Shown: piece by piece, positions 4,512 through 28,436 of the stretch
Position numbering within the stretch: the first letter of the stretch is position 1
How the letters are laid out: each line of letters opens with the position of its first letter
Origin: Brucella gallinifaecis
GTDB taxonomy: Bacteria; Pseudomonadota; Alphaproteobacteria; Rhizobiales; Rhizobiaceae
DNA length: 48,430 nt
Direction: 5' to 3'
NCBI RefSeq assembly: GCF_006476605.1
Contig: NZ_ML636816.1
Span: 1-48,430 of the forward strand
Made by a program: the position numbers and the translations under genes
The notes under the pieces: generated by a model
The model's input: the letters and a program-made list of their open reading frames with translations, nothing else
The model's database searches: none
Told to the model about the DNA's origin: nothing

Positions 4512-4568
4512 GCCTTTTCCTCCTTAAGCGATGATAATTCCGTTATTATTGTTCGACCTGTCAGCTGT

Positions 4569-5900: not shown

Positions 5901-5947
5901 TTATAGAACTCACTTAAAGAGGATATATGCGAAGTTGATTGATTACT

Positions 5948-7264: not shown

Positions 7265-7344
7265 TGAACGTCAAGCCTTAAGGCTCGTCCTTTTGAAATA
7301 AAGTGATCTCAGATGCGATCCCATAATAGGAGCGGATGCAGGAA

Positions 7345-8903: not shown

Positions 8904-9619
8904 CCACCAGCCTTTCCGTAACCGGGGAAAGCCATCCAGGCTTCAAGCTTGGCCATGCCATAAGTCAGAACCGATACGAGGCTCACATATATAACCAGTA
9001 CCAGCACCATAACTTCGAGTGTGCGGAAGTTATCATTGTAGATCTGTCCGGCGTAATACATCAGTTCAGGGACAGCAATCACCGAAGCCTGAGAGGTCGT
9101 CTTGAAAAGATTACTCAGGATATTTGTGAGTGCCGGAAGGCAGATACGCGTTGCGATCGGCGCTTCAATGCGCCAGAAACGCGACCAGCGGCCATAGCCA
9201 AGAGAGCGTGACGCTTCAATAATCGAACGAGGCATGGTTTCAATGCCAGAACGAAATGCTTCAATTGCCAATGCGCCACCAAACAGGCTGAGCGAAATAG
9301 CAGCGCAAGAGAAGGCACTTAATAACGGAACTGAAAGGCCCGTCACCGGATCGACAACTTTCAAACCTAAAGTCGACAAGGTGAAATACGCAAACAACAT
9401 TTGCAGCAAAGGCGGTGTGTTGCGAAAAACCTCGACAAAAAGCTCAATAAGCGCATCAAGCCAGAAAATACGCAAGGTCAGACCAAGCGCACCCAACATA
9501 CCAATCAGCACCGCAACGAATGAAGAAATCGCTGCGAGCTGAATAGTGTTGAGGACCCCAATCACTAACCAATGCTGGTAGGTCGGATCACCGAGCCATG
9601 AATAATCAAGACCGAACAA
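8900..9619 (-). CDS. polar amino-acid ABC transporter permease
   Basis: 239 residues, HisQ/GlnP-type. A short periplasmic N-terminus is followed by five hydrophobic segments and the EAA loop EASRSLGYGRWSRFWRIEAP (about 138-157), with the VFRNTPPLLQ motif of amino-acid permeases near 64. It starts 21 bases after the binding-protein stop and overlaps the next permease by four bases. It is the partner of that permease in the import channel. Confidence 0.9.
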   Translation of the reverse strand: MFGLDYSWLGDPTYQHWLVIGVLNTIQLAAISSFVAVLIGMLGALGLTLRIFWLDALIELFVEVFRNTPPLLQMLFAYFTLSTLGLKVVDPVTGLSVPLLSAFSCAAISLSLFGGALAIEAFRSGIETMPRSIIEASRSLGYGRWSRFWRIEAPIATRICLPALTNILSNLFKTTSQASVIAVPELMYYAGQIYNDNFRTLEVMVLVLVIYVSLVSVLTYGMAKLEAWMAFPGYGKAGG

Positions 9620-9640
9620 AAGTGCCTCTCCGAGCTGAGC

Positions 9641-10465
9641 TTAGTTGTTTACAGCAGCGGCAGCGGCTTTGGCCCGCTCTGCAATATAATCGGAGGCAGG
9701 CATGTTAAATTCCTTCTCCCACTCGATGAGCTTTCCTTCAGCTTCCGCTTTGTGAATGGCTTTGTCGACGACTTCCTTGAAAGCCACGTCGCCTTCACGA
9801 ATGCCGCCACCCATCGGCGCAAACTCATAAGGCTGAACAGCGATTTTGTAGCCGGCCCAGTCTGCTTCACGCAGCTTCATGCGCAATGTGATGTCGTCAA
9901 AAACGAAACCGATGCAGCGATTATCCTTAAGGGCACGATAGGCTTCCGGCGGGTTCTTGAAAGCAACCAGCTTCATGCCGAATTCTTCTGTCATCTTCTT
10001 ATTGAAGTATGAACCCTGAATGCCGCACACAGTTTGACCTTTAAACTGATCCCAGCTGTCGATCTTGGCTTCCTTTGCCATCATGACCGAAGGACCGCCA
10101 GCCGAAACATACTGCGTGGTGAAATCGATTACCCGATCCCGTTCCGGCGAAATTCCAAGCGTCGCGAACACAATATCAACACGGCCAGCCGACAAAAATT
10201 CAATACGGTTTGCCGCGACTACCGGAACCAATTCGATCTTATCTTCAGAACCAAGAAGTTCTTTTGCAACATATTTTGCCAACTCTATTTCAAAGCCGAC
10301 GATCTCACCTTTTTCATTCAAATAACCATAAGGCGCATAATCATTTTTCACGCCGACAATGAGCTTGTCGCGCTCTTTAATCGTCGCAAGCGTATCGGCC
10401 ACAGCATTCTGAGCTGCCAGTACCGCGCACATGGCCACCGTCGACAGAATAATTTTTCTGATCAT
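9641..10465 (-). CDS. periplasmic amino-acid-binding protein (SBP family 3)
   Basis: 274 residues with a signal peptide (cleavage near AVA-DT, residue 23) and the family 3 core: IKERDKLIVGVKNDYAPYGY, IVGFEIELAKYVAKE and DIVFATLGISPERDRVIDFT. These proteins bind polar or cationic amino acids and related amines in the periplasm. It is the first gene of the minus-strand operon and the first product made, as usual for binding proteins needed in excess. The ligand is not determined; the downstream oxidases suggest an amine, an N-alkyl amino acid or an opine-like compound. Confidence 0.9.
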   Translation of the reverse strand: MIRKIILSTVAMCAVLAAQNAVADTLATIKERDKLIVGVKNDYAPYGYLNEKGEIVGFEIELAKYVAKELLGSEDKIELVPVVAANRIEFLSAGRVDIVFATLGISPERDRVIDFTTQYVSAGGPSVMMAKEAKIDSWDQFKGQTVCGIQGSYFNKKMTEEFGMKLVAFKNPPEAYRALKDNRCIGFVFDDITLRMKLREADWAGYKIAVQPYEFAPMGGGIREGDVAFKEVVDKAIHKAEAEGKLIEWEKEFNMPASDYIAERAKAAAAAVNN

Positions 10466-11513: not shown

Positions 11514-13910
11514 TTATGCACCGTATGGTACCCAGATGTTTTTGACCTGGATAGCTTTACGCAGATAATCACGGCCCTGTGCTTCGGCTTTATTGCTCCA
11601 GTTCGGCAGACGACCATTGCTGACCCATGTCGCTTTGAGGTTTCCTGCGGAAGCTTTTTCAACCATAGCGCTGCCATCTTTTGAGCCGAAGTACCAAAGA
11701 GCTGCCACTTCATCATGCTCGGCCAAGGTTTTGGTAAGGACATCACGCTCGCCAGTGACGATATTGACGACACCACCCGGAACATCCGATGTATCGAGCA
11801 GTTGATAAAAATCACCCGCAATCAGCGGATGACGGCTTGACGGCACGACAACCGTACGATTGCCCATGGTAATGGCAGGCAGAACAAGCGAGACAAGTGA
11901 GAGAAGCGGGGCCTCATCCGGGCAGACAATTCCCATCACTCCCCATGGTTCATTCATGGCAAGTGTCACATGACGAGACTTGGTTGAGTGGACAGCACCA
12001 TCGAATTTGTCGGCCTGTGCTGCGTAGTAGAAAATCCGGCGTAACGATGCCTCGACTTCCTCTGTGGCTTTCTTTTCGCTGACGCCGGTGCTTTCGACCA
12101 GTCGATTGATAAAGTCACTGCGGCGGGCATCGAGATTTTCACCCAGATAATAAAGCACCTGCGCCCGGTTATGCGCTGTTGCATTGCCCCAGCTTGATGC
12201 CTTTGCGGCAGCCTCAACCGCATTGCGAATGTCTTTGCGGTTGCTGATCCCGACCTGACCGATAACCGTACCAGCCTTGCCAATAACAGAATAACTGTAA
12301 CCACTGTCGGAACGTACCTGCTTTCCGCCAATATAGTTCTTCATCGTACGGTCAATGCCGTTGGTTGCAATCTTTGCCTCACCTGAAGGCAAAGCGGATG
12401 GCACGAAGCTTTCATTCACCTTGGATGGAGCAAGCGCCTTTTCCCAATCGGCTACGAGATATTCGTAAAGCCCTTCACGTGCCCCTTCACGGCCATAGCC
12501 GCTTTCGCGATAGCCACCAAAGCCTGCCCCCGCATCAAGCATATTGGTACAGTTGATCCAGACAACCCCAGCCTTCACGTGCGCCGCAAGATCAAGCGCG
12601 ACATTGATGTTTTCTGACCAGATGGATGCAGCGAGGCCATAACGCGTGTTATTTGCAAGGGCTACAGCTTCATCCGGCGTGCGAAAACTTGTAGCAGCAG
12701 CAATTGGTCCGAAGATTTCCACCTGACAAACCGTTGCAGCCTGATCAACATCTGTGAAGAAACCCGGTGCAATATAATTGCCTTTCGCTGGCATAGGGTT
12801 GGGTGTTTGCCAAAGCTGGCCGCCTTCCTCAATGCCCTTTTGAATGAGATCAGAAATGCGCTTCACCTGTGTCGGCGAGACAATCGCACCAACATCGGTC
12901 GATTTATCAAGCGGGTCACCGACGCGTAAGGTCTCAAGCCGCTTTCTCAGCTTGGCATAAAAACGATCGGCAATGCCTTCCTGCACCAGAAGACGTGAGC
13001 CTGCACAACAGACTTCACCCTGATTAAACCAGATGGCATCGACCACGCCTTCAACGGCTGCATCAAGATCAGCATCTTCAAACACAATGAAAGGCGACTT
13101 GCCACCAAGTTCCAGAGAAAGCTTCTTGCCAGAGCCGGCAGTCTGCTCGCGAATAATGCGGCCCACCTGTGTTGAACCGGTGAAGGCAACCTTGTTCACG
13201 TCTTCATGACCACAGATGCTAGCGCCTGTTGTACCATCGCCCTGAACAATATTGACCACGCCCGCAGGCAGACCAACTTCATGGCAGATTTCTGCAAAGG
13301 CAATGGCCGTCAATGGTGTCAGATCGGCAGGCTTTAACACCACCGTATTGCCTGCTGCGAGTGCAGGGGCGATCTTCCATGCCAGCATCAAAAGCGGGAA
13401 GTTCCATGGAATGACCTGCGCGCAGACACCAACAGGCGAAAAGCCTTTAAACTCGTCTTCGACCATCTCTGCCCAACCGGCATGATGGTAAAAGTGACGA
13501 ACAGCGAGAGGAATATCGATGTCGCGGGTTTCGCGCAGCGGCTTGCCATTATCCATTGCTTCGAGCACCGAAAGAAAGCGTTCGCGCTTCTGGATATGGC
13601 GGGCAATGGCATAAAGATATTTGGCACGTTCATGGCCGGAAAGCTTCGACCATTTACCAAAGGAGTTACGTGCCGCTTTTACCGCCTGATCAACATCTTC
13701 CACTGTGCCAAGCAGAATCTCCGCCAGCTTGTCGCCATTGGCGGGATTGGCTACAGCAATGGTCTGACGACCTTCCGGCTTGGTGAAAGAGCCATTGATG
13801 TAATGACCAAACGAACGGCCATGCTGTTCCAGCCACTGCTTCACATCGGCGCTGGCTTCGGGGGAAGGTCCATATTCCATGGTCTTCAGAATGTCCTTGA
13901 TAGGTCGCAT
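11514..13910 (-). CDS. two-domain aldehyde dehydrogenase, ALDH16-like
   Basis: 798 residues, about 300 longer than an ordinary ALDH. Residues about 30-505 form a complete ALDH with Asn170 (IPWNFP), Glu267 (LELGGK) and the nucleophile in GEVCCAGS (Cys301, perhaps Cys302). Residues about 530-798 repeat the cofactor-binding half (YIGGKQVRS, NEPWGVMGIVCPDE, GNRTVVVPSSRHPL) but have no Cys/Glu pair, so the second half is catalytically dead. This is the plan of the ALDH16 family, known in animals and some bacteria. The ATG at 13910 has GGAAC before it; a longer frame to 13979 adds residues unlike the family. It is the last gene of the eight-gene operon, 71 bases after deoC, so it probably oxidises the acetaldehyde released by that aldolase. 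Confidence 0.87.
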   Translation of the reverse strand: MRPIKDILKTMEYGPSPEASADVKQWLEQHGRSFGHYINGSFTKPEGRQTIAVANPANGDKLAEILLGTVEDVDQAVKAARNSFGKWSKLSGHERAKYLYAIARHIQKRERFLSVLEAMDNGKPLRETRDIDIPLAVRHFYHHAGWAEMVEDEFKGFSPVGVCAQVIPWNFPLLMLAWKIAPALAAGNTVVLKPADLTPLTAIAFAEICHEVGLPAGVVNIVQGDGTTGASICGHEDVNKVAFTGSTQVGRIIREQTAGSGKKLSLELGGKSPFIVFEDADLDAAVEGVVDAIWFNQGEVCCAGSRLLVQEGIADRFYAKLRKRLETLRVGDPLDKSTDVGAIVSPTQVKRISDLIQKGIEEGGQLWQTPNPMPAKGNYIAPGFFTDVDQAATVCQVEIFGPIAAATSFRTPDEAVALANNTRYGLAASIWSENINVALDLAAHVKAGVVWINCTNMLDAGAGFGGYRESGYGREGAREGLYEYLVADWEKALAPSKVNESFVPSALPSGEAKIATNGIDRTMKNYIGGKQVRSDSGYSYSVIGKAGTVIGQVGISNRKDIRNAVEAAAKASSWGNATAHNRAQVLYYLGENLDARRSDFINRLVESTGVSEKKATEEVEASLRRIFYYAAQADKFDGAVHSTKSRHVTLAMNEPWGVMGIVCPDEAPLLSLVSLVLPAITMGNRTVVVPSSRHPLIAGDFYQLLDTSDVPGGVVNIVTGERDVLTKTLAEHDEVAALWYFGSKDGSAMVEKASAGNLKATWVSNGRLPNWSNKAEAQGRDYLRKAIQVKNIWVPYGA

Positions 13911-13981
13911 TTTATGTTCCTTACGAGCATTTCCAGCAAAGTTCTTGGCGCCCTGCGCCTGGAAATGCGTAAAAGCCAAAT

Positions 13982-15001
13982 TTAAGCAGCGGCGTGACGG
14001 TTGGTGCTCGAATAACGTCCGGTCACGAAGTGCTCCAATTGCCGTTCAATATCGCCAAGCATCGATGATGCGCCGATGCGGAACAGATCCGGTTCCAGCC
14101 AGCGATTGCCGAGTTCTTCTTTCATAAGCGTGAGCCATGCCAGAGCATCTTTGGAGGTCTTGAGACCACCGGCCGGCTTGAAGCCAACGATCTGGCCAGA
14201 CAATTCGCCATAATCGCGCAAGGCGCGTACCATGGTCAGGCTAACTGGCAGCGTCGCATTAACATCTTCCTTGCCGGTCGAGGTCTTGATAAAATCGGAA
14301 CCCGCCTGCATAGCCACCATCGAGGCGCGATAAACATTGCTCAGCGTGTTAAGGTCGCCGGTCGCAAGAATGGCCTTCATATGAGCGTCACCACAGGCTT
14401 CACGCATGGCTGAAATCTCATCATAAAGCGCTGACCAGTTCTGTGTGAGCACATGCTCGCGTGTAATCACGATGTCGATCTCATCCGCACCCTGCTCAAC
14501 CGCATAGGCAATTTCGGCCAGCCGCAATGGCAGCGGCGTCAATCCTGCCGGAAAGCCTGTCGCAACCGACGCCACAGGAATGCCGGCCCCCTCAAGCGCC
14601 TTAACCGCATGGGGCACCATGGTCGGATAAACACAGACAGCACCTGTGGTAATGCCGGCATCGCCGAGCCCAAGCGCCTCCAGAATATCATCGCGTACCG
14701 GACGGCGTGCCTTGGCGCAAAGACGGCGCACACGACCTTCAGTATCGTCACCGGCAAGGGTAGTCAGATCAATGCATTGAATCGCCCGGACAAGCCAAGC
14801 TGCCTGATATTCTTTCTTGATCGAACGACGTGTCGGCAAGCTCGAAGCACGCCGCTCCGATGCACTGCGGTTTACAACAACATCTTCAAACCATTCAGGC
14901 CGTAAAGATGTGCCACTATTGCGGGGAAAATTCATAATTTCATCAACCATACTCGCAGAGGAAGAAAGCGTAGTGAAACTGGCAGGAATTGAGACCGTCA
15001 T
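13982..15001 (-). CDS. deoC: deoxyribose-phosphate aldolase
   Basis: 339 residues, the long DERA form with an N-terminal extension and a C-terminal HFVTGRY segment as in eukaryotic DERA. The catalytic set is intact: Schiff-base Lys239 in DFIKTSTGK, Lys275 in VGFKPAGG and Asp176 in DEIDIV. DERA splits 2-deoxyribose-5-phosphate into glyceraldehyde-3-phosphate and acetaldehyde. Its ATG overlaps the permease stop as ATGA, so it belongs firmly to the sugar operon. Next to an ALDH16 enzyme, the acetaldehyde would go to acetate. There are no nucleoside phosphorylase or phosphopentomutase genes here, so it serves an imported sugar or polyol and not nucleoside salvage (inference). Confidence 0.92.
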   Translation of the reverse strand: MTVSIPASFTTLSSSASMVDEIMNFPRNSGTSLRPEWFEDVVVNRSASERRASSLPTRRSIKKEYQAAWLVRAIQCIDLTTLAGDDTEGRVRRLCAKARRPVRDDILEALGLGDAGITTGAVCVYPTMVPHAVKALEGAGIPVASVATGFPAGLTPLPLRLAEIAYAVEQGADEIDIVITREHVLTQNWSALYDEISAMREACGDAHMKAILATGDLNTLSNVYRASMVAMQAGSDFIKTSTGKEDVNATLPVSLTMVRALRDYGELSGQIVGFKPAGGLKTSKDALAWLTLMKEELGNRWLEPDLFRIGASSMLGDIERQLEHFVTGRYSSTNRHAAA

Positions 15002-16011
15002 CCTCGGCCCTTTCTGTGATCGATAAACCGGTTAAGAAGAATGGCAGCGACAATAATGACCCCGGTAACGGTCATCTGATAGAAAGACCCCCAACCAAGC
15101 AGGTTGAAGATATTTCTGAGCACCTGAAGCAGCATGACTGCGAAGAACGTGCCCAATATGCTGCCACGCCCGCCAAACAAACTGGTTCCGCCCAGCACGA
15201 CAGCAGCGATTGCATCGAGTTCAAGGCCCTGTGCCGCTGTTGGCTGCCCGATGCGCAAACGAGAGGTAAGCAATATGCCAGCAAAAGATGCCATCAGACC
15301 GGAAATCGAAAAGACGGCGATGATCATGCCACGTGTCGGCAAACCGGAAAGGCGTGCAGCTTCAGGATTGCCACCCGTTGCATAGACATATTCGCCAAAA
15401 ACCGTATAGCGAAGAACAAGACCCGCAATAATACAAAGGGCAATGAAGATTATTCCCATTGAGGCTATAGCGAAGCCCGGGAAGACTGGCACCATTGTTG
15501 AACTGATCGTTGCAAAACCTGCTGGTAATCCACTCACAGGAACGCCATCAGTCAAAAGATAAGTCAGGCCACGAAATGAAACCAAACCGGCCAGTGTGAT
15601 AATAAAGCTCGGCACCTGTGCGAGGGCGGATATAGCTCCCATTCCTGCTCCGCAAGCCATACCTGCAAATGCAGTTATGACAACGGCTACAACCGGATCA
15701 TAACCTTGCGCCATGAGCACGGCGACCAGCATGCCACAAAGTGCGGCAACGCTCCCCACTGACAAATCAATATTGCCGGTCAGAATGACGAAGGTCATGC
15801 CAACCGCAACAACGCCGACAACCGATGCCTGCTGAAACAGGTTTGCAATATTACCGAAGGTTAGAAAGTTGCTGGAAAGACTGGAGGCGATTGCAACGAC
15901 CAACAGGAAGATAACGATAAAATTATATTCTACCGCCAGATTGATCAGGCGTTTGGTCACAGGAGCCCTGTCTGCTTGAGCGCTCAATAATGGTGTATCA
16001 GTGCTGGACAT
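14998..16011 (-). CDS. ribose-type ABC transporter permease (RbsC family)
   Basis: 337 residues, mostly hydrophobic, about 8-10 membrane helices. It has the family hallmarks GNIDLSVGSVAALCGM (about 79-94), the cytoplasmic GNPEAARLSGLPTRG loop that meets the ATPase, and AVVLGGTSLFGGRG near the end. It overlaps the ATPase gene upstream by 14 bases and deoC downstream by 4. Two copies should form the sugar channel with the two-domain ATPase and the binding protein of the same operon. Confidence 0.9.
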   Translation of the reverse strand: MSSTDTPLLSAQADRAPVTKRLINLAVEYNFIVIFLLVVAIASSLSSNFLTFGNIANLFQQASVVGVVAVGMTFVILTGNIDLSVGSVAALCGMLVAVLMAQGYDPVVAVVITAFAGMACGAGMGAISALAQVPSFIITLAGLVSFRGLTYLLTDGVPVSGLPAGFATISSTMVPVFPGFAIASMGIIFIALCIIAGLVLRYTVFGEYVYATGGNPEAARLSGLPTRGMIIAVFSISGLMASFAGILLTSRLRIGQPTAAQGLELDAIAAVVLGGTSLFGGRGSILGTFFAVMLLQVLRNIFNLLGWGSFYQMTVTGVIIVAAILLNRFIDHRKGRG

Positions 16012-17497
16012 GGAAACTGTCCCCCAGAATTGTTGTTTTCAGGATCGTGTCACGATCGGTTTTTGAAGGATCATAGCGAGCAATAATGCGGCCTTCATGG
16101 AAGACCCATATGCTATCGCAGGATGAGTAAAGTTCATCCAGTTCACTGCTGGCGACGATAACAGCTGCGCCCTCATCGGCAAGCTTGTGGACCAGATTAT
16201 AGAGATCAGCCTTGGCACCAATATCAAGTCCGCGACTTGGTTCATCGAGCAGCAGAATTCGGGCGCCATTGATTATCCACTTGGCCAGAACAACCTTTTG
16301 CTGATTACCGCCGGAAAGCTGGACAACCGACTGTTCGGGAAAACCATATTTGATTGAAAGACTAGCGAGAACTGGCTGCGTGCGCTGTTTCTGGAAACTG
16401 TGGCGGGTAAGCCAGTTCGATTTCATAGCTGGCAAAGTGGCATTCTTATAGATTGGCGCATGAAGGATAAGCCCTTCAGTCTTTCGGTTCTCCGGCACAA
16501 GCCCAATACCGAACCGAATGGCGTCTGATGGATAACGCGGCTTAAACGGCTTGCCATCAATCTGAACATCGCCCTGAAAAGCCCGTGCTCCAAACAGTGA
16601 TTTCAGAAAGCTCGTACGCCCGGAACCATTCAGCCCCGTCAACCCCGTCACTTCACCCCAACGCACCTGAAAATCATCAATATGCAGGCCTTCATCGCCT
16701 TTGAGACTGGTCACCTTCAGCGCGACTTCACCTGTTGCTGGCGGACGTTCCTGTCGCTCGACCAGTGAGCGCTCGCGGCCTATAATCGCCTCGACCAGCA
16801 TTTCATCGCCGGTAGAACTCAATTCAAAAGTCTCGATCGTTTTGCCGCCGCGCAAGACAGTCACGCGGTCACCAATTTCACGCAGCTCACCAAGGCGATG
16901 GCTGACATAAAGGATTGCAACCCCTTGCCGGGTCAGTTCGCGAATAACCTCAAAAACGCTTTTGAGTTCTGTTTCGTTAAGCGCTGCCGACGGCTCATCC
17001 ATAATGATGATTTTTGCGTCCATGGTCAGTGAACGCGCGATTGCAGTAAGTTGCTGGTTTGCGACCGATAGCGTCTCAATACGCGCATCGGGTGCGAAAT
17101 TCGCCCCCACTCGCTTGAGTGCTTCCACAGCTTTGCGCCGACGATCCTTTTTTCTCAGAAAGCCTAATGTTTTTGGCGCATGTCCCAGAAACATATTTTC
17201 TTCGACGGTCAGTTGCGGAACCAGATCAAGTTCCTGATAAATCATCGAAATACCAAGACGTGAGGCTTCCGACGGTGATCTTGGCGAGACTTTTTTGCCA
17301 TCTATCGCGACAGTGCCCGTCGAAGGGCGCAGTGCACCCGCAATGATTTTGAGAAATGTCGACTTTCCAGCGCCATTTGCGCCCAGCAAACAATGTATTT
17401 CGCCTTTTTGAATGTCGATTGAAGCATGTTCCAGCGCAACAATATTGGGCGGAAACCGCTTGGAGACGTTGCTTACGGACAAAACGCTATGGGACAT
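15998..17497 (-). CDS. two-domain sugar ABC transporter ATPase (RbsA/MglA family)
   Basis: 499 residues with two ATPase halves. The first has Walker A GANGAGKST, signature-like LSVANQQLTAIARSL and Walker B IIIMDEPSAAL. The second has the usual degenerate Walker A (GLNGSGRTSFLK), signature LSGGNQQKVVLAKW and DEPSRGLD. This one-chain double ATPase powers ribose/galactose-type importers. It overlaps the regulator gene by 11 bases and the permease by 14. Confidence 0.92.
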   Translation of the reverse strand: MSHSVLSVSNVSKRFPPNIVALEHASIDIQKGEIHCLLGANGAGKSTFLKIIAGALRPSTGTVAIDGKKVSPRSPSEASRLGISMIYQELDLVPQLTVEENMFLGHAPKTLGFLRKKDRRRKAVEALKRVGANFAPDARIETLSVANQQLTAIARSLTMDAKIIIMDEPSAALNETELKSVFEVIRELTRQGVAILYVSHRLGELREIGDRVTVLRGGKTIETFELSSTGDEMLVEAIIGRERSLVERQERPPATGEVALKVTSLKGDEGLHIDDFQVRWGEVTGLTGLNGSGRTSFLKSLFGARAFQGDVQIDGKPFKPRYPSDAIRFGIGLVPENRKTEGLILHAPIYKNATLPAMKSNWLTRHSFQKQRTQPVLASLSIKYGFPEQSVVQLSGGNQQKVVLAKWIINGARILLLDEPSRGLDIGAKADLYNLVHKLADEGAAVIVASSELDELYSSCDSIWVFHEGRIIARYDPSKTDRDTILKTTILGDSFHVQH

Positions 17498-18485
17498 TTG
17501 AAACCTCTAGGGCATGTCGTGCTGTGGCCTCATCGGTCACGATAACCTTGAGATATCCAGCTGCGAGTGCGGCGACAGCGATATTGTGTTTTTCGGGACC
17601 GGAAACGACGCCGATACTGTGTTGCTTTCTGGAAAGGGATTCCAGGCGCAATCCCAGTGTACGATCATCGATCGAGCTATCGACAATGGCGCCCTTCATA
17701 TCGACAAAGCGTCCAAGAATATCACCCACGGCACCCGCATCACGCAAACGATCAATGTCGGTTTCGTTGAGATAACCTGAGCTTAAAAGGACCGATTGAT
17801 GCGTGATGCCGCCCATGCCAAAACAAACGGTTTCTGCCTGTTCTGCCAGTTCCATCACCCGCTCGACAATTGGATCCTCTTCAAGCGCATCGCGTGTACT
17901 CTTCTTGCCAAGAATGGCCGGAACCGGCAGCAATGTGGTTTTGCCATTGCCTGCTGCGGCTGCAAATTCTTCAGCAACGGCACTGGTTCTGACGGTTGTT
18001 GAATGCAGATGCGTTGATCCATTGACTAAGACGACATGCAATCCGGGGCACCAGTTGCTTGGCAAAAATTTCGCCACGGCGGACATGGTTCGCCCCCAGG
18101 AAACCCCCACTAAGTCTGGCTTTGGATGCATGGCTGCAAGATAATGTGCCGCCGCCTGCGCCACACTTTCCATCAACAAAGCCGAATCTGTGCTGTCCCC
18201 TGTCGGCACTACGATTGCATCATGAAGATGATATTGCTGCTGCAACATGATTTCGAGTTCGGTGCGGCGCTGTGCACGTGGAGTAATCTCAATCCTGACA
18301 ACACCCAGCTCCTTGGCTTCGGTCATAAGCCGTCCCACCTGCCAGCGGGTAAGTCCAAGTTCCTTTGCGATCTCACTCTGCGTCCGCTCGAGTTCATAAT
18401 AGAGCTTGGCAACCCGCACCATAAGATGCTCGCGCTGTTCATCGGAAGGAAGACGTACGGATGGGTTCAAACGGCTGTCGTTCAT
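17487..18485 (-). CDS. SorC/DeoR-family sugar-responsive regulator
   Basis: 332 residues. The N-terminal helix-turn-helix is YELERTQSEIAKELGLTRWQVGRLMTEA (about 30-57); the rest is the SorC sugar-binding domain (LVGVSWGRTM, VCFGMGGI, AIVDSSIDDRTLGL), which binds phosphorylated sugars in relatives such as SorC, EryD and LsrR. It lies inside the operon between kinase and ATPase, with its ATG overlapping the kinase stop (ATGA), which fixes the start; a longer frame only reads the kinase gene. It probably represses its own operon by binding the inverted repeat at 22215-22261 and is released by the phosphorylated product of the kinase (inference). Confidence 0.87.
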   Translation of the reverse strand: MNDSRLNPSVRLPSDEQREHLMVRVAKLYYELERTQSEIAKELGLTRWQVGRLMTEAKELGVVRIEITPRAQRRTELEIMLQQQYHLHDAIVVPTGDSTDSALLMESVAQAAAHYLAAMHPKPDLVGVSWGRTMSAVAKFLPSNWCPGLHVVLVNGSTHLHSTTVRTSAVAEEFAAAAGNGKTTLLPVPAILGKKSTRDALEEDPIVERVMELAEQAETVCFGMGGITHQSVLLSSGYLNETDIDRLRDAGAVGDILGRFVDMKGAIVDSSIDDRTLGLRLESLSRKQHSIGVVSGPEKHNIAVAALAAGYLKVIVTDEATARHALEVSNVP

Positions 18486-20002
18486 ATTGGAGCTCCTGTT
18501 GCCTGTCGCGCAGACAACCGATGCAGCGTGGGAGTCAGCGCTGCGGTTGCTTCGCGATAAAGCTCCAATGTATCCGCGAACCAAGCACTGCGCACCGCAT
18601 TTGGATGCAATTCCTCTGTATATGCAGCGCAATTTTTTGCGGCTGTAATCAAGTCAGGGAAAAATCCCAGTGCATGGGCCGCACTGACCGAAGCGCCAAT
18701 GAGCGAGAGATTGTCGCTTTGCGCAACCAAGACTGGACGCGCAAAAGCATCAACTGTGCTTTGCAGCCATAGCGGGTTTTTACAAATACCGCCGGCCATA
18801 ACGATACGGTTGATCGTTACATCGCGTTTTTCCAAAGAGTAGAGAACATTGGCCGAGCCAAGCGCGATTGAGTCAACGGCCGATGCATAAATATCTGCTC
18901 TTCCATGTCCCAGCGAAAGCCCCAGCATTGCACCGCGCAAGTGCCCATCCCGGTAAGGTGTCCGGTTCCCCATCCAGTAATCAAGGGTTAGCAATCCAGA
19001 GCCAGCCTGTTGCGCGACACTGGCCTGTTGAATAAGTGCCCTGTGCTCATCAGCATCCAGACCAAATATCTGACCGCTTAACCAGTTGAGAATGGAACCA
19101 GTAGAGACCTGCCCTGCCTCAACCAGCCAGTAATCATCCACCAGCGCATTGGGATAAGGCCCCCAAAAGCCGTTAACATCGCTATAGCCTGCAAGATGCG
19201 TCAAAAGCACATTGGACGTGCCGCCGATAGCGAGCATCGAGCCAACATCAACTGTATCGGATCCGAGCATACCGATATGCGCGTCAATTCCGCCCTGCGC
19301 AATCAGCGGACAGGAAGTCAATCCAAGCGCTTCAGCCACATGCTTTTGCAAAGCGCCAATGGTTCCGCCAACAGGAATAATGCGCTGCGGGAGTTTAGCT
19401 GCCAGCTCTTCAACACCAAGCTGCGTATAAATTTCAGGAACGAACCGGGATGCAAGAGAATCGTAATTCCATTTGCAGGCTGCGTTCATACGCGAGCCAA
19501 CCCATTCACCTGACAGCTTGAAATTGATGAAATCAAGGGCTTCGCAAATGACGTCTGCCTGCGCATAGATTTCCGGCTCATTGCGCGCCAGCCACATTGC
19601 TTTCGGAACAAGCCATTCCACCGCATCGCCACCACCGCTAAAGGCCATCACGGGATGATCGACCTGTGTGGTAAGATGCGCTTCCGCTGTGGCGCGACAA
19701 TCCATCCATAACAAGGCCGGACGCAAAGGCTGGCCATCCCTTTTGCACACGGCGACAGTTGATGCCGTCGTTGCAGCACAGATTGCAGCCACATCCCGTA
19801 TGCCACTTTGCTCAACAGCCTTGCGACCCGCAACCAAAAGGGCTTCCCACCATTCACCCGGCTGCTGCTCAGCCCATCCGGCGCGTGGATAGGTGGTGTT
19901 ATATTGTACTTCAGCAACAGCAATCATATTGCGTCGCTCAAGGTCATATACACCGGCACGAACGCTGCCGGTGCCAAGATCAAAACTAAGAACACATGTC
20001 AT
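18482..20002 (-). CDS. FGGY-family carbohydrate kinase
   Basis: 506 residues. The phosphate loop FDLGTGSVRAG is at 7-17, the catalytic Asp240 in QGGIDAHIG, and the adenine-side motif MAGGICKNPLWLQ near 390; YWMGNRTPYRDGHLRG is the hinge seen in ribulokinase-like members. FGGY kinases phosphorylate sugars, ketoses or polyols with ATP in the cytosol. GGAGG at good spacing supports the ATG at 20002. It is 51 bases after the GatD-like dehydrogenase gene. With DERA downstream, the product should be a phosphate that can be turned into a deoxyribose-5-phosphate-like aldol. Xylulose, ribulose or glycerol kinase would be too specific a name. Confidence 0.9.
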   Translation of the reverse strand: MTCVLSFDLGTGSVRAGVYDLERRNMIAVAEVQYNTTYPRAGWAEQQPGEWWEALLVAGRKAVEQSGIRDVAAICAATTASTVAVCKRDGQPLRPALLWMDCRATAEAHLTTQVDHPVMAFSGGGDAVEWLVPKAMWLARNEPEIYAQADVICEALDFINFKLSGEWVGSRMNAACKWNYDSLASRFVPEIYTQLGVEELAAKLPQRIIPVGGTIGALQKHVAEALGLTSCPLIAQGGIDAHIGMLGSDTVDVGSMLAIGGTSNVLLTHLAGYSDVNGFWGPYPNALVDDYWLVEAGQVSTGSILNWLSGQIFGLDADEHRALIQQASVAQQAGSGLLTLDYWMGNRTPYRDGHLRGAMLGLSLGHGRADIYASAVDSIALGSANVLYSLEKRDVTINRIVMAGGICKNPLWLQSTVDAFARPVLVAQSDNLSLIGASVSAAHALGFFPDLITAAKNCAAYTEELHPNAVRSAWFADTLELYREATAALTPTLHRLSARQATGAPI

Positions 20003-20053
20003 GTAAAACCTCCCTATACCAACTCCCGATTGGTATATTACCGTCGCTGATGC

Positions 20054-21076
20054 TCAGGGACGAAACATGACTTTAGAGAAAAACATCGATTTGTCAGATT
20101 TGAATTTCTCGAACATTTCCGGCAGTTCAGCGAGATCAAGATCATGGCTGATCATGAATTCCCACTTCAGATCGCCCGCTCCCAGCTTATCCAGTGCCAC
20201 GGTCCATTGCGGTCCCGGATAAGGAGCACCGAATGAATTCCACGAGCCGTGCAACGAGATTTCCTGACGCAAAAAATGCTGAAAGGTTTTGTTATCCAGC
20301 GTGACATCCGATACCGGTATGCCGATGAAGACAACATGGCCGCCCGGAGCAGCCAGTTTCACAGCCGCATTGATTGATGAAGGGTGGCCAGCTGCTTCGA
20401 CAATGATTTCGCAAAGCAAATCTGCGGGGATTTCCTCACCGGGCAAGAATGTATGCGTAGCTCCCGCCTCACGAGCAAGATCAAGCTTTTGCTGTGAAAC
20501 ATCGATTGCAACGACTTCGCTTGCCCCCATCAGTTTCATCCACTGGATCGCAAACAGGCCAATTGGCCCACAGCCGATAACCGCTCCGCGCTGCCCGATC
20601 GTAACGCTGCCCGCTTTCCAGATAGCATGCAGCGCAATGGATGCAGGATCGGTCATTGCGACAGCACGAGGATCGAGATCTTGCGGTGTCTTGAGAAGAT
20701 TTTCGACCGGAACACAGACAAATTCCGTATAGGCACCATCTCTGCGCGATCCAAAATAATCATAATCGCGGCAACGTGAAAACTGGCCTTTTTGGCATTG
20801 ATCGCATTTCCGACAAGGCAACATTGGAGGAATGGCCACCAGCTCACCCAGTGCAAAACCGTCAACACCATCACCTATCTCAGTAATATGCCCGGAAAAT
20901 TCATGCCCGCAGATAATGGGCATCTTATGTGCGCCCTTGATAAGCATACGCGGCAAGTCAGACCCGCAAACACCAACAGACGCAACCCGCAAAATGACGT
21001 GCCCAGGGCGCACCTTTGGGACGGGTACATCTTCGATACGAATATCGCCGGGAGTATATAATACTGCTGCACGCAT
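20054..21076 (-). CDS. zinc-dependent polyol dehydrogenase, GatD-like
   Basis: 340-residue medium-chain dehydrogenase. Catalytic zinc ligands Cys37 (GVCGSD) and His58-Glu59 (GHEF), structural zinc Cys88, Cys91, Cys94 and Cys102, and the NAD loop IGCGPIGLFA near 163. Several segments resemble E. coli GatD (galactitol-1-phosphate 5-dehydrogenase): CGSDLPR, YDYFGSRRDGAYTEF, LRQEISLHGSWNSF and PYPGPQW. It should oxidise a secondary alcohol of a polyol or polyol phosphate with NAD+. It is the second gene of the operon, between binding protein and kinase. Whether it acts before or after phosphorylation cannot be told. Confidence 0.87.
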   Translation of the reverse strand: MRAAVLYTPGDIRIEDVPVPKVRPGHVILRVASVGVCGSDLPRMLIKGAHKMPIICGHEFSGHITEIGDGVDGFALGELVAIPPMLPCRKCDQCQKGQFSRCRDYDYFGSRRDGAYTEFVCVPVENLLKTPQDLDPRAVAMTDPASIALHAIWKAGSVTIGQRGAVIGCGPIGLFAIQWMKLMGASEVVAIDVSQQKLDLAREAGATHTFLPGEEIPADLLCEIIVEAAGHPSSINAAVKLAAPGGHVVFIGIPVSDVTLDNKTFQHFLRQEISLHGSWNSFGAPYPGPQWTVALDKLGAGDLKWEFMISHDLDLAELPEMFEKFKSDKSMFFSKVMFRP

Positions 21077-21186
21077 GGGAAAAATCCTGAGTGAATTTGA
21101 TATTTTACTTGGAACTTTTGGCTGGAACCGGACAAAGGCAAGCCATGCGAGCCGCTGATTTTCAATCCAGCGACCCGGTTTATGCA

Positions 21187-21206
21187 GTGCTCCGGTGAAA
21201 GAGCAC
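21187..21206 (-). other. small hairpin after the binding-protein gene
   Basis: Stem GTGCTC / GAGCAC with loop CGGTGAAA in the 145-base gap between binding protein and dehydrogenase genes. No T-run follows on the minus strand, so it is more likely an RNA-stability or processing hairpin that favours the binding-protein message than a full terminator. Confidence 0.35.
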
Positions 21207-21221
21207 CGACAATTTTAATGA

Positions 21222-22196
21222 TTACTTTGCGAGCGCCTCTGGCCGGTATTCGGCAAACAGACTCTCATGCGGGAATTTGCTCACATTCTCTTTTGTGACA
21301 ACGGCTGTTCCTGCATCTACAAATTTTGGCACGTCTTTCTTAGCTGCCGCCTGAACCGCAACCTGAATGGTCACATCACCAAGATATTTCGGATCATTAA
21401 GCGCCGTTGCAATGTAATGATCACCTTTCGACATTGTCTCAAGGGCTTCCGACAAACCGTCGACACCTGCAACCGAAACGTCACTCCGCCCAGTTTCCTG
21501 CAAAACCTGCAATGCACCAAGCGCCATGTCGTCATTATGTGCATACACAACCTTCACATCAGGATTGGCCTGTAGCAAATCCTGCATCGCAGTAACGGCA
21601 TTTGCCCGTATATATTCGGCATAAGGCCCGGCAACAATTATATGCTTGCTGCCTTCAATCGCCTTATGGAAACCATCGCGGCGATCCATCATAACGGCGC
21701 CGCCGGCATCACCCTGAATTTCAATGATCTTGGCACTTTCAATGCCATCAGCTTTCAGCTTTGCAAGAACAGCTTCACCAACGAGCTGACCCATTTTCTT
21801 ATTATCACGACCAATATGTGCACTCACACCATCGCCATTAACGCTGCGGTCTACTGTGATCACGGGTATTTGCGCACTCACTGCAGCTTCCAGTGAGGGC
21901 ACAACAGCGTCCGGGTTAACTGGATTGATGATGATCGCATCCACGCCCTGCGTGATGAGATCTTGAATATCGTTGTTCTGCTTGCTCACATCACCATTGG
22001 CATCAAGAAACACGAGCGTATTGCCCGAAGCCTTAGCCGCTGCCTCAGCCCCTTCTTTTAACTGAACATAAAATGGCGACTGCAACGTTACCTGACTAAA
22101 GCCGATTTTAAGCCCCTCGGCCAAAGCAAGTGATGGCAACATCAATGAAGCTGAGATGGCCGTGAAAGCCATGAGTATATTACGACGATTGAGCAT
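21222..22196 (-). CDS. periplasmic sugar-binding protein (ribose type)
   Basis: 324 residues with a signal peptide (cleavage after ALA, about residue 26) and the RbsB-type fold: KIGFSQVTLQSPFYVQLKEG, the repeated DANGDVSKQNNDIQDLITQGVDAI segment, IIINPVNPDAV and VVYAHNDDMALGAL. It binds a sugar or polyol in the periplasm for the permease/ATPase pair downstream. GGGAGG precedes the ATG. It is the first gene of the eight-gene minus-strand operon, directly after a promoter overlapped by a long inverted repeat. Confidence 0.92.
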   Translation of the reverse strand: MLNRRNILMAFTAISASLMLPSLALAEGLKIGFSQVTLQSPFYVQLKEGAEAAAKASGNTLVFLDANGDVSKQNNDIQDLITQGVDAIIINPVNPDAVVPSLEAAVSAQIPVITVDRSVNGDGVSAHIGRDNKKMGQLVGEAVLAKLKADGIESAKIIEIQGDAGGAVMMDRRDGFHKAIEGSKHIIVAGPYAEYIRANAVTAMQDLLQANPDVKVVYAHNDDMALGALQVLQETGRSDVSVAGVDGLSEALETMSKGDHYIATALNDPKYLGDVTIQVAVQAAAKKDVPKFVDAGTAVVTKENVSKFPHESLFAEYRPEALAK

Positions 22197-22214
22197 TCTT
22201 TTCCTCCCTAAGAT

Positions 22215-22261
22215 ACTCGAACCAACAAATGTGAATTTAATGCACTTTTGTTGGTTCGAGT
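22215..22261. promoter_or_regulatory. operator: 19-bp inverted repeat upstream of the sugar operon
   Basis: Arms at 22215-22233 and 22243-22261, reading ACTCGAACCAACAAATGTG and CACTTTTGTTGGTTCGAGT, pair over 19 bases with one mismatch around a 9-base centre. The repeat begins 19 bases upstream of the binding-protein ATG and touches the -10 box. It is the best candidate binding site for the SorC-type regulator of this operon; a leader-RNA hairpin is the alternative. Confidence 0.65.
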
Positions 22262-22288
22262 TTTATTCAAGGAAAAGGTTATTGTCAA
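22260..22288 (-). promoter_or_regulatory. sigma70-type promoter of the sugar operon
   Basis: Minus-strand TTGACA (22283-22288), a 17-base spacer and TAAAAC (22260-22265). The -35 is perfect and the spacing ideal. Transcription would start within the inverted repeat at 22215-22261, which is what a repressor-controlled promoter would show. Confidence 0.65.
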
Positions 22289-22800: not shown

Positions 22801-23790
22801 TTAAGCGATATCGATTACTGGCATAGAATAATCTGGGTCAAAGCCAATTGTATTTCGTAAGGGCAATCCGAACCCCTGAGCCTCAATTTCAAAAATATCA
22901 CCAACTTTTGTAACGATCCCATCCGCAACACTAAGCGTAGCAGTTCCAAACATGTGAACATGCACATCACCTGGTTGGCGAAACAAACCATACTTGAAAT
23001 GGTGATACTCAAGATTGGCTATTGAATGGCTCATATTGTCTTCGCCCGACAAGAATGGCTTTTCCCAAAAGACTTTTCCCTCGCGAAGAATGCGTGATGT
23101 TCCCTCGATATGGGCAGGAAGGGCACCCAGCCTTAGTTCAGGACCAATGGAACAAGGACGCAACTTGGAATGGGCGAGATAAAGGTAATTTGCTCGTTCC
23201 GTGATATGATCAGAAAACTCATTCGCGAGTGTAAAGCCAAGCCTGCAAGGATTTCCATCCGCATCTATGATATAAATACCGGCAATTTCAGGTTCTTCAC
23301 CTGCATCAAGTGCAAAGGCGGGAGAACGAAGTTCCGAGCAGGGAGCCGCTAAGCAATGTCCGTTACCTTTGTAAAACCATTCCGGCTGGACACCTCTAGT
23401 GCCGGTAACTGGCTTGCCCTGCTCCAACCCCATCTGGAACATTTTCATCGAGTCCGTGAGTACCTCATCCTGTTCAACTCCTGACTTATGCATTGCATCA
23501 CGCGTTGATGCGGAACCAAGATGAGTAAGGCCGGTACCTGTAAGATAAAGATGTGAAGGATCAGGGTGATCGATAGGCGAAAGTAACCGTCCGTCATCCA
23601 GCAACTGCAGGTAATTAATATTTTCGCTCAGACCAGCTTCCCTGATGGTGTTACCTATCCCCTTGCCTGACAAGGATGCAGTGGCAATCGCATAAACAGA
23701 TGTATAACCGTTTACCTTACGGGCAACACCATCATTAACCACGGCCACCGCACGTTCACCGTTCTGGTCTAGATATTGAATCAGATTCAA
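22801..23790 (-). CDS. GguC/AraD1-family protein (FAH-superfamily enzyme)
   Basis: 329 residues, recognised as the GguC/AraD1 family (LYLTGTGLTHLGSA, MFQMGLEQGKP, QPEWFYKGNG, CRLGFTLANEFSDH, KLRPCSIGPEL). Relatives belong to the fumarylacetoacetate hydrolase superfamily, and some are reported as 2-keto-3-deoxy sugar acid (L-arabonate) dehydratases; acidic residues in EPEIAGIYII and NEFSDH would hold the divalent metal. It is the last gene of the TRAP/CoA operon, its ATG overlapping the stop of the preceding gene. A sugar-acid dehydratase beside a CoA-transferase and a MaoC hydratase is an odd mix, so the reaction here should be treated as open. Confidence 0.75.
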   Translation of the reverse strand: MNLIQYLDQNGERAVAVVNDGVARKVNGYTSVYAIATASLSGKGIGNTIREAGLSENINYLQLLDDGRLLSPIDHPDPSHLYLTGTGLTHLGSASTRDAMHKSGVEQDEVLTDSMKMFQMGLEQGKPVTGTRGVQPEWFYKGNGHCLAAPCSELRSPAFALDAGEEPEIAGIYIIDADGNPCRLGFTLANEFSDHITERANYLYLAHSKLRPCSIGPELRLGALPAHIEGTSRILREGKVFWEKPFLSGEDNMSHSIANLEYHHFKYGLFRQPGDVHVHMFGTATLSVADGIVTKVGDIFEIEAQGFGLPLRNTIGFDPDYSMPVIDIA

Positions 23791-24941
23791 CGCTCAAGCC
23801 CTCCCAGTTCAAGCAATCGCTGTCTAGCAACAGATGCATCTTCTCCATTTGCTAAAGATCTTGCGATTGCTTCACCGCCCAGTTGCTGGAATTCGACATA
23901 TCCTTGAAAGCGAGGTCTGATCCAGGCTGCTTCCACAGTTGATATAACGGAACTGAAAAATCCATTATAACGAGCATCCATGTCCGCATCGGTCCATCCA
24001 CAATGACCACCCGGTTGCCCATGATGTTCGGCAACAAGGCTTGCTTGAATGACATCGCTCGCCATATAGCTTGCAAAAGCCAGTGCTGCATCCTGCTGGA
24101 CGCTGTGGCGCGAAATTCCCATAGCCGTACCGCCAATGGCTGTACCGGCATGGTAGGGAACAGCTATTCCGGCAAAAGCTGCAAAGCCAAGACGATTAAC
24201 ATTGTCCGGCTCACCATATGTCGCATAGCCATAAACGAGTGGCGCATAGACAATATCATCGCGGACGGCCATCTGCTCATGAATATCTATACTGTTCCAG
24301 CCCCAAGTTTCCAGCGGTGATAAATCAAGGATCGCACGAACGGCATCATAAGCCTGTGTAAAGCTGTGCTCCGGGATTGCCAGCAATTGTTTATCACTTG
24401 CTTCAACTGGCTTTCCCAAATTCGCCATATATGCAAATACGCTCAGTAGAGCATGTGGGGTTTGCACAGGCGTACCCAGATAAAGCCCTTTACCGCGAGC
24501 TTGCCTGCCAAGCTGCAGCACATCGGCATATGTTGTTGGAAGTTTAGCATTCATTTCAGCTAAAAGATCGTTGCGTACCAAAGCATGCTGGGTTGCACCG
24601 TCGATCGGCAGACCCCAAACATGCCCGGCGAACCGATATGTCTCAAGACTCGGACCAATATAAGAAGAGCTTGCTAAAGCAGATGTCAGCTCAGGCAGCC
24701 TGTCGTCGAGCGTCAGGAAGCATTCGCTCGTGGCAATGGCGCCACAAAAAGGGTGATCAAAAATGACGATGTCATGTTCCTTCGCCACTTGCTCGATACC
24801 CTGATGCTCAAAATCGCTTAAGGGACGGATAACCTGCTCGATTTCTACATTGGGATGATCGCGGCGATAGGCCTGTATTGCTGCTGCAACAGGCGCCGTG
24901 GCGCGCCGGTTATTCCAATTAAGAACAGAAAGTCTGATCAA
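23787..24941 (-). CDS. binding-protein-like protein (SBP family 1) without signal peptide
   Basis: 384 residues with the fold pattern of sugar-type extracellular binding proteins: early YRRDHPNVEIEQV, VWGLPIDGATQHALVRNDLL, an AAFASYMASD helix late in the chain and a Trp-rich C-terminal third. The start is TTG at 24941 with AAGGAGG six bases before it, one base after the MaoC stop. The protein begins MIRLSVLNWNNRR directly with the first strand, so there is no signal peptide and it should stay in the cytosol. It is not next to any ABC permease; neighbours are a MaoC-type hydratase and a GguC-like enzyme. It may bind a CoA-pathway intermediate or act as a sensor or new enzyme; its function is unknown. 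Confidence 0.75.
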   Translation of the reverse strand: MIRLSVLNWNNRRATAPVAAAIQAYRRDHPNVEIEQVIRPLSDFEHQGIEQVAKEHDIVIFDHPFCGAIATSECFLTLDDRLPELTSALASSSYIGPSLETYRFAGHVWGLPIDGATQHALVRNDLLAEMNAKLPTTYADVLQLGRQARGKGLYLGTPVQTPHALLSVFAYMANLGKPVEASDKQLLAIPEHSFTQAYDAVRAILDLSPLETWGWNSIDIHEQMAVRDDIVYAPLVYGYATYGEPDNVNRLGFAAFAGIAVPYHAGTAIGGTAMGISRHSVQQDAALAFASYMASDVIQASLVAEHHGQPGGHCGWTDADMDARYNGFFSSVISTVEAAWIRPRFQGYVEFQQLGGEAIARSLANGEDASVARQRLLELGGLER

Positions 24942-24942
24942 T

Positions 24943-28378: not shown

Positions 28379-28436
28379 GATAAACTCGTTGTTAGAAAAG
28401 ATGCGTACAGGCTCCAAACCCGCACGCGATTATGGC

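What the first reader, a model, noticed from the sequence alone, without database searches (positions are those of the whole stretch)
11514..22288. Eight-gene operon for an unassigned sugar or polyol ending in retro-aldol cleavage and acetaldehyde oxidation
Seen: binding protein, GatD-like zinc dehydrogenase, FGGY kinase, SorC-type regulator, ribose-type ATPase and permease, DERA with intact Lys239/Lys275/Asp176, and an ALDH16-type enzyme, mostly with 4-14 base overlaps. Known: DERA releases acetaldehyde from 2-deoxyribose-5-phosphate. Inference: the imported compound is phosphorylated and oxidised to a 2-deoxy aldol phosphate that DERA splits, and ALDH16 turns acetaldehyde into acetate. No PfkB deoxyribokinase, nucleoside phosphorylase or phosphopentomutase is present, so the usual deoxynucleoside route does not explain it. 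A deoxy-pentitol or deoxy sugar would fit.
Basis: partly seen in the sequence, partly recalled or inferred. Interest (0 to 1): 0.75.

Follow-up and report, generated by a model that had tools for sequence, protein, structure and literature searches.

The report
Operon feeding deoxyribose-phosphate aldolase
A conserved set of eight bacterial genes appears to import an unidentified sugar-like compound and turn it into the DNA sugar phosphate 2-deoxyribose-5-phosphate, which is then split and burned; the likeliest food is a reduced form of the DNA sugar.

Summary
The eight genes are there as described, with intact catalytic residues. They recur as a unit: of the best 80 relatives of the kinase in named genomes, 27 have the identical order, 76 have the GatD-like dehydrogenase, and 62 have a DERA gene within 10 kb (47 the window's long type, 15 a distantly related short type). 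The window's DERA groups with DERAs from deoxyribokinase operons. Its genome has one DERA and no match to the deoB, pyrimidine phosphorylase or PNP models searched. A palindrome, CAAATGTG-N9-CACATTTG, precedes the operon, is the best such site in the genome, and recurs before relatives in Alpha-, Beta- and Gammaproteobacteria. The regulator's nearest solved relative is Bacillus subtilis DeoR, but an invariant Asn replaces the Lys that holds DeoR's aldehyde effector (recalled). Best reading: a 2-deoxypentitol (simplest, 2-deoxy-D-ribitol) is imported, phosphorylated by the FGGY kinase, oxidised by GatD to 2-deoxyribose-5-phosphate, cleaved by DERA, and ALDH16 oxidises the acetaldehyde. The DERA step is well supported; substrate and order are inferred. 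One genome keeps kinase-DERA-ALDH16 without GatD, another GatD-DERA-ALDH16 without the kinase. A new variant of the kinase-aldolase pathway.

The parts
22215..22261 (-). 47-bp inverted repeat, proposed operator of the SorC-type regulator; 25-bp core CAAATGTG-N9-CACATTTG at 22226-22250
   Evidence: 23-nt arms 91% complementary; best site in the whole genome, 1 mismatch, next best 2; changed at matched positions on both arms between the window and two genus relatives; found at 13 or more of 16 before sbp or gatD in 36 of 80 relatives
22260..22288 (-). possible promoter TTGACA-17-TAAAAC overlapping the edge of the palindrome
   Evidence: read by eye; not called by the consensus scan, so weak
21222..22196 (-). 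ribose-type periplasmic binding protein
   Evidence: PF13407 199 bits; nearest solved chain 4yv7, 337 bits
20054..21076 (-). GatD-like zinc-dependent dehydrogenase
   Evidence: NF007642 266 bits, below its cut-off of 550; GVCGSD, GHE, C-x2-C-x2-C-x7-C and GxGPIG motifs present (meaning of the motifs recalled)
18482..20002 (-). FGGY sugar kinase of an uncharacterised subfamily
   Evidence: PF00370/PF02782; best NCBIfam match PRK04123 ribulokinase 243 bits, below its cut-off of 428; Asp240 invariant in 10 of 10 aligned orthologs
17487..18488 (-). SorC-family regulator (start at MNDSRL; the TTG start at 18632 overlaps the kinase)
   Evidence: PF04198; nearest solved chain B. subtilis DeoR 8r7y, 160 bits; Asn156 invariant in 72 of 72 distinct sequences
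15998..17497 (-). sugar ABC transporter ATPase (two ABC stretches)
14998..16011 (-). sugar ABC transporter permease
   Evidence: PF02653; ribose permease model 243 bits, below its cut-off of 398
13982..15001 (-). deoxyribose-phosphate aldolase, long type
   Evidence: TIGR00126 150.6 bits above cut-off; D176, K239, K275; only DERA match in the genome
11514..13910 (-). ALDH16-type two-domain aldehyde dehydrogenase (likely start MRPIKD; the ORF is open from 13979)
   Evidence: 6mvr match over residues 26-821, 904 bits; next to DERA in the best 30 of the long-DERA matches of the order sample, 30 of 30

Best explanation
It is a SorC-controlled catabolic operon that feeds 2-deoxyribose-5-phosphate (dR5P) to DERA by a kinase-dehydrogenase route. 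Proposed path: the ribose-type ABC transporter imports a 2-deoxypentitol (simplest case 2-deoxy-D-ribitol); the FGGY kinase phosphorylates its C5; the GatD-like enzyme oxidises C1 to give dR5P; DERA splits dR5P into glyceraldehyde-3-phosphate and acetaldehyde; ALDH16 oxidises acetaldehyde to acetate. The regulator represses from the palindrome at 22215-22261 and is released by a non-aldehyde phosphorylated intermediate, for example the deoxypentitol phosphate. Shown: gene set, catalytic residues, conservation, DERA association and palindrome. Inferred: every reaction before DERA, their order, the substrate, the acetaldehyde step, operator function and effector. Split confidence: the path passes through dR5P and DERA 0.8; the imported compound is a 2-deoxypentitol 0.42; kinase before dehydrogenase 0.6.
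For: DERA lies within 10 kb of the kinase in 62 of 80 loci, 47 long and 15 short type, and in 50 of 59 loci with at least 5 kb on both sides. In nine Pseudomonas loci a DeoR gene stands before the binding protein and a short DERA is near; it is divergent in the seven whose strand was printed. The one DeoR tested passes E. coli DeoR's cut-off, 275 against 244 bits. All 10 order genomes with the GatD ortholog (10 of 297) have the long DERA, against 90 of 397; 8 of 10 have it adjacent; five of the ten are one genus. The window's DERA is nearest, outside its genus, to an Agrobacterium deoxyribokinase-operon DERA (90% identity). One DERA in the genome; no deoB, TIGR02644 or TIGR01697 match. Deoxyribose-operon genes adjoin in L063, L089, L099, L113. 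Price et al. 2019 (PMC6365646; passages and sections 11 and 12 seen): the kinase-aldolase route matters for growth on deoxyribose in two Burkholderiaceae, with no deoC data for one. Regulator nearest to B. subtilis DeoR, with Asn for the aligned Lys in 72 of 72. Palindrome before sbp or gatD in 36 of 80 loci.
Against: No biochemistry. GatD-type enzymes usually oxidise secondary alcohols (recalled); the proposed step oxidises a primary one. Chelativorans salis (L081) has kinase, DERA and ALDH16 without sbp, GatD or regulator nearby, and its genome's best GatD match is only 32% identical: the kinase alone may suffice there, or the operon is decaying. G154 has GatD, DERA and ALDH16 but no kinase ortholog (best 27%). 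18 of 80 loci lack a DERA nearby, 9 of them with full flanks; 17 of the 18 genomes hold one elsewhere, but DERA is common. S. meliloti and R. leguminosarum keep dehydrogenase and kinase with another ABC system and no DERA close by. The binding protein keeps much of the ribose-binding set (roles recalled). 2-Deoxypentitol as a natural nutrient rests on GC-MS lists. Context labels on the DERA tree are clustered, not freely mixed (17 changes; shuffled mean 22.6), and only five deoxyribokinase rows were available. The operator consensus was drawn partly from the same loci; spacing 11 also scores in 18 loci; where gatD is the first gene, 16 of 27 upstream regions score below 12 of 16.
Confidence: 0.42

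Rival explanations
1. The substrate is 2-deoxyribose itself: the FGGY enzyme replaces the PfkB deoxyribokinase, and GatD plays a side role, such as recovering deoxyribitol.
For: No PfkB kinase in the operon; the window genome has none closer than 38% to a deoxyribose-operon kinase; ribose-type binding protein; deoxyribose-operon genes nearby in several loci; Chelativorans salis (L081) keeps kinase-DERA-ALDH16 without a close GatD in its genome.
Against: L063 carries a deoxyribose transporter set with a PfkB kinase (90% to the Agrobacterium one) beside this operon, so the FGGY enzyme would be redundant there; L089 also has a PfkB kinase in a DeoR-DERA-ALDH16-RbsD run, but only 36% identical. 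GatD is kept in 76 of 80 loci, and three of the other four lie at contig edges. The effector-site Asn is invariant.
Confidence: 0.23
2. Two pathways share one operon: GatD and the FGGY kinase handle an ordinary pentitol or hexitol to a ketose phosphate, while DERA-ALDH16 serves deoxyribose or deoxynucleoside debris separately.
For: The GatD-kinase pair exists without DERA nearby in 18 of 80 loci, some truncated; the DERA-ALDH16 pair exists without GatD in other loci; a xylulokinase-like FGGY and SDR genes sit next to gatD in some clusters.
Against: Repeated association with two distantly related DERA types. In L104, L117 and L124, which carry the other ABC system upstream, the palindrome sits directly before gatD, as if gatD to ALDH16 were one unit. 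A kinase matching the deoxyribose-operon reference was seen in only 2 of 80 loci.
Confidence: 0.2
3. DERA here is a variant that cleaves another aldol phosphate (for instance releasing glycolaldehyde or lactaldehyde from a normal or branched sugar phosphate), and ALDH16 oxidises that aldehyde.
For: The in vivo substrate of ALDH16 was not found in the passages seen; the binding protein could take ribose-like compounds.
Against: The window's DERA is 90, 84, 83, 78 and 65% identical to the five DERAs of deoxyribokinase operons seen and falls among four of them in the tree; a Pseudomonas short DERA scores 277 bits on the deoC model and such loci carry an E. coli-type DeoR.
Confidence: 0.1

Closest known systems
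Deoxyribose kinase-aldolase operon (here seen as DeoR, AI-2-type ABC transporter, aldose epimerase, PfkB kinase annotated rbsK, deoC, ALDH16)
   Same: Long DERA followed by ALDH16; ABC import; ends in the same cleavage
   Different: FGGY kinase plus GatD-like dehydrogenase instead of the PfkB kinase; SorC-family regulator; ribose-type binding protein; no epimerase. That these operons serve deoxyribose is inferred from their genes and from Price et al. 2019
Deoxynucleoside deo operon (deoCABD)
   Same: DERA; a DeoR gene in the Pseudomonas version
   Different: No match to the deoB, pyrimidine phosphorylase or PNP models searched in the genome
Oxidative deoxyribose/deoxyribonate pathway (Price et al. 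2019, PMC6365646)
   Same: Also an alternative way to use a deoxypentose
   Different: Goes through deoxyribonate and a beta-keto acid, without DERA
Galactitol-1-phosphate dehydrogenase GatD, and polyol operons with FGGY kinase and SorC-type regulator (erythritol eryABCD, recalled)
   Same: GatD-type dehydrogenase, FGGY kinase and SorC regulator in one operon
   Different: GatD score is about half the equivalog cut-off; ends in DERA-ALDH16

Membership tests
Deoxyribose-phosphate aldolase (TIGR00126) | Score above curated cut-off | tested here: met
   150.6 against 117.3 bits
Deoxyribose-phosphate aldolase (TIGR00126) | Schiff-base Lys, second Lys and Asp (roles recalled) | tested here: met
   K239, K275, D176
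Deoxyribose-phosphate aldolase (TIGR00126) | Cleaves dR5P | not testable with these tools
   No assay
ALDH16 | Two-domain length and near full-length match to the solved bacterial enzyme | tested here: met
   6mvr, residues 26-821 to 3-767, 904 bits; identity of 6mvr as ALDH16 recalled
Deoxyribose kinase-aldolase operon | PfkB-type deoxyribokinase | tested here: not met
   None in the operon; best in genome 38% and ribokinase by model
Deoxynucleoside deo operon | Phosphopentomutase and nucleoside phosphorylase | tested here: not met
   TIGR01696, TIGR02644, TIGR01697 without match in the genome; TIGR00107 and TIGR02643 not searched
Galactitol-1-phosphate 5-dehydrogenase (NF007642) | Equivalog cut-off | tested here: not met
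   266 against 550 bits
Ribulokinase / xylulokinase (FGGY equivalogs) | Equivalog cut-off | tested here: not met
   243 against 428 and 219 against 380 bits; FGGY superfamily domains present
Bacillus DeoR (NF053881) | Equivalog cut-off | tested here: not met
   248.6 against 420 bits
Bacillus DeoR (NF053881) | Lysine that binds dR5P as an imine (Lys141, recalled) | tested here: not met
   Asn156 at the aligned position, 72 of 72 sequences

The most novel reading that the evidence does not exclude
A widespread, undescribed pathway for 2-deoxypentitols: import, phosphorylation by a new FGGY specificity (2-deoxypentitol 5-kinase), oxidation by a new GatD-type specificity (2-deoxypentitol-5-phosphate 1-dehydrogenase), then DERA and ALDH16, under a SorC-family repressor that senses the polyol phosphate rather than the aldehyde. 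It would be a further bacterial route for using the carbon of the DNA sugar, beside the kinase-aldolase and oxidative routes.
Probability: 0.38. Interest if true: 0.68.

Novelty: new variant of a known kind. Interest (0 to 1): 0.55.

Why it matters
In the records seen, kinase, dehydrogenase and regulator are named only by superfamily or as ribulose kinase, ribulokinase, sugar kinase and galactitol-1-phosphate dehydrogenase. If the reading holds, over a hundred genomes (122 kinase relatives) gain a defined pathway, two enzyme specificities and a regulator with its operator. It would also suggest that reduced deoxyribose is common enough in soil and on plants to be worth a dedicated transporter. 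The prediction is narrow enough to test with a handful of purified proteins.

Tried and rejected
Chance neighbourhood: rejected by the conservation counts. Deoxynucleoside salvage: no partner genes found with the three models searched. DERA fed by the genome's own ribokinase: possible as a side source, but does not explain the co-conservation. The palindrome as a CRP site: the half-sites look alike, but the centre is one base longer than CRP's N6 (recalled), and spacings 5-8, 10, 12 and 13 give 1-4 of 80 loci; spacing 11 gives 18 and is unexplained. The second-best genome site lies in a two-component gene region and is probably chance. Literature: 10 of 10 searches used. FGGY together with 'deoxyribose-phosphate aldolase' gave 0 papers, FGGY with 'galactitol-1-phosphate 5-dehydrogenase' 0, ALDH16 with 'deoxyribose-phosphate aldolase' 1, unrelated by its title, DeoR with Schiff base and two more terms 0. 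Only open-licence PMC papers were searched, so absence from print is not shown. The ligands bound in 4yv7 and in 4ry9 (nearest to the other ABC system's binding protein) could not be read: the tools used gave no titles. Structure prediction of the binding protein without alignment was poor (mean pLDDT 43.5) and was not used.

Full report
What is there. On the minus strand between 22196 and 11514 lie eight genes: binding protein, GatD-like zinc dehydrogenase, FGGY kinase, SorC-family regulator, ABC ATPase, permease, DERA and an ALDH16-type aldehyde dehydrogenase. Four of seven junctions overlap. The regulator most likely starts at 18488 and ALDH16 at 13910. DERA's Asp176, Lys239 and Lys275, GatD's zinc and NAD motifs, the kinase's Asp240, and the ALDH cysteine motif are present. 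The window lies in a 3.74 Mb genome; the nearest named relatives by kinase are Brucella (Ochrobactrum) thiophenivorans, 90%, and Ochrobactrum chromiisoli, 89%.

A recurring unit. A scan of named genomes with a ten-sequence kinase alignment gave 122 relatives, of which the best 80 were kept. Of the 80, 76 have the dehydrogenase, 75 the regulator, 49 the window-type binding protein, 21 a different binding protein seen in Sinorhizobium meliloti, 47 the long DERA, 46 ALDH16, and 15 a short DERA; 62 have some DERA. The exact eight-gene order on one strand occurs in 27. With at least 5 kb on both sides, 50 of 59 have a DERA. Of the 18 without, 9 have full 10-kb flanks; 17 of the 18 genomes have a DERA match elsewhere (16 above cut-off), five of them starting within 140 bases of a contig end, which fits a broken assembly. 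These loci are related to each other, so the counts are not independent events.

Why dR5P. The short DERA (277 bits on the deoC model) and the window's long DERA are only 30-33% identical, yet both accompany the dehydrogenase-kinase pair. In nine Pseudomonas loci a DeoR gene stands directly before the binding protein and a short DERA is near; the one DeoR tested passes the E. coli DeoR model. The window's DERA is 90% identical to an Agrobacterium DERA that follows a PfkB kinase, but 79-85% to DERAs of the same eight-gene operon in Shinella and Phyllobacterium; over the five deoxyribokinase-operon DERAs seen the range is 65-90%. The tree (85 rows, 80 different; SH-aLRT support only) needs 17 changes for three contexts, so contexts have been exchanged repeatedly, though less than in shuffles (mean 22.6) and with only five deoxyribokinase rows; most 'alone' rows were labelled from 1.5 kb of flank, 13 of 16 of these then checked on up to 14 kb. 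In the order sample all 10 genomes with the GatD ortholog hold the long DERA against 90 of 397 in general; five of the ten are one genus. DERA and ALDH16 are adjacent in the best 30 of the long-DERA matches, 30 of 30, including 16 where no other gene of this operon was seen within 1.5 kb. The own genome has one DERA and no match to three deoxynucleoside models.

What goes in. Chemistry allows few routes from one kinase and one NAD dehydrogenase to dR5P; a 2-deoxypentitol is the simplest (inference). Deoxyribose itself is less likely, because L063 carries a deoxyribose transporter set with a PfkB kinase beside this operon (L089 a weaker case, 36% identity) and because GatD is so constant. Against this, Chelativorans salis (L081) keeps kinase, DERA and ALDH16 with no close GatD in its genome (best 32%), while two other Chelativorans species have the whole operon (L077, L082): decay, or a kinase that suffices alone. 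The regulator's nearest solved relatives are two entries of Bacillus subtilis DeoR (8r7y 160 bits, 4oqp 119.5), then the sorbitol operon regulator 2w48, 115 (that the chains named deoxyribonucleoside regulator are from B. subtilis is recalled). DeoR binds dR5P through a lysine (Lys141, recalled); the aligned residue here is Asn156, invariant in 72 of 72 distinct sequences. I read this as an effector without an aldehyde. The binding protein is nearest to 4yv7. Compared with ribose-binding proteins, D116, R117, R172, N221 and D246 are retained, while the aligned Asn is Ser40 and the aligned Gln is Asn267 (alignment; roles recalled). 2-Deoxypentitol appears by name in GC-MS lists such as a wine study (listing, passage). 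A hit for 2-deoxy-D-ribitol in an Astragalus study concerned a standard made by reduction; the passages seen do not show how much the plant holds.

Control region. A 47-bp inverted repeat ends 18 bp before the binding-protein gene. Window and genus relatives differ at matched positions on both arms, so the symmetry is kept. The core CAAATGTG-N9-CACATTTG scores at least 13 of 16 in 38 of 80 loci, 36 of these within 250 bp upstream of sbp or gatD; 20 rounds of shuffled loci give 0-6 of 80; spacings 5-8, 10, 12 and 13 give 1-4 loci; spacing 11 gives 18 (17 upstream), unexplained. By class: 40 of 48 regions before sbp score at least 12 (30 at least 13), but only 11 of 27 before a leading gatD (6 at least 13). 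The consensus was drawn from some of the same loci, which inflates the counts; the whole-genome scan, where the window's copy is the best in 3.74 Mb, used the window's own site as one source too. In L104, L117 and L124, with the other ABC system upstream, the best site sits before gatD, which suggests that gatD to ALDH16 can be a unit of its own.

Results against. Sinorhizobium meliloti pSymB and Rhizobium leguminosarum keep gatD and kinase without DERA close by. G154 (L053, L187) keeps gatD, DERA and ALDH16 with no kinase ortholog in the genome (best 27%). GatD-type enzymes mostly oxidise secondary alcohols (recalled). In the rivals' favour, some clusters also hold a xylulokinase-like FGGY, SDRs and a glycerol-dehydrogenase-like gene, so the transport system there may bring in several polyols. 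Whether the deoC shown to matter in Burkholderiaceae (Price et al. 2019, passages and sections 11-12) is of the long type was not tested.

Verdict. Observation confirmed; interpretation supported as far as DERA, open for the substrate. A new variant of the kinase-aldolase pathway; interest 0.55.

Noticed in passing
L029 3066-13512, L118, L103: A neighbouring polyol cluster: cupin-type glucose-6-phosphate isomerase (PF06560, tested on L096), ABC system, xylulokinase-like FGGY, SDR genes, glycerol dehydrogenase, then gatD and the FGGY kinase of this report; the binding protein of this type in S. meliloti is nearest to 4ry9.
   Followed up: partly
L108, L109, L115, L116, L133: A HAD-family sugar-phosphatase-like gene (family 14, 12 loci) follows the permease in Pseudomonas and ALDH16 in Paraburkholderia heleia.
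   Followed up: partly
L187 6556-13631 (G154): Variant with an RpiR-type regulator and an unassigned 528-aa ORF that begins like a zinc dehydrogenase (by eye), then gatD, DERA and ALDH16, without FGGY kinase.
   Followed up: partly
L081 9959-15064: Chelativorans salis keeps only kinase, DERA and ALDH16 of the operon; no close GatD in the genome.
   Followed up: partly
upstream of sbp or gatD in 17 loci: The operator half-sites also match at spacing 11, which may mean overlapping or tandem sites.
   Followed up: no
L175 (G091) 2784-7401: DERA-ALDH16 near genes that match the 3-oxo-isoapionate-4-phosphate decarboxylase model (above cut-off) and the kinase model OiaK (below cut-off).
   Followed up: no
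window 3042-10465: Two FAD oxidoreductases beside an amino-acid-type ABC transporter and an aldehyde dehydrogenase: looks like an amino-acid or amine catabolic set.
   Followed up: no
window 30682-33496: Siderophore-type ABC system close to EitA and EitC, below the cut-offs.
   Followed up: no
window 22801-29414: GguC-type AraD1 protein, an SBP, a CoA-transferase and a TRAP transporter in one block upstream of the operon.
   Followed up: no
L022, L023: The whole operon lies on large plasmids in Phyllobacterium and Shinella.
   Followed up: yes
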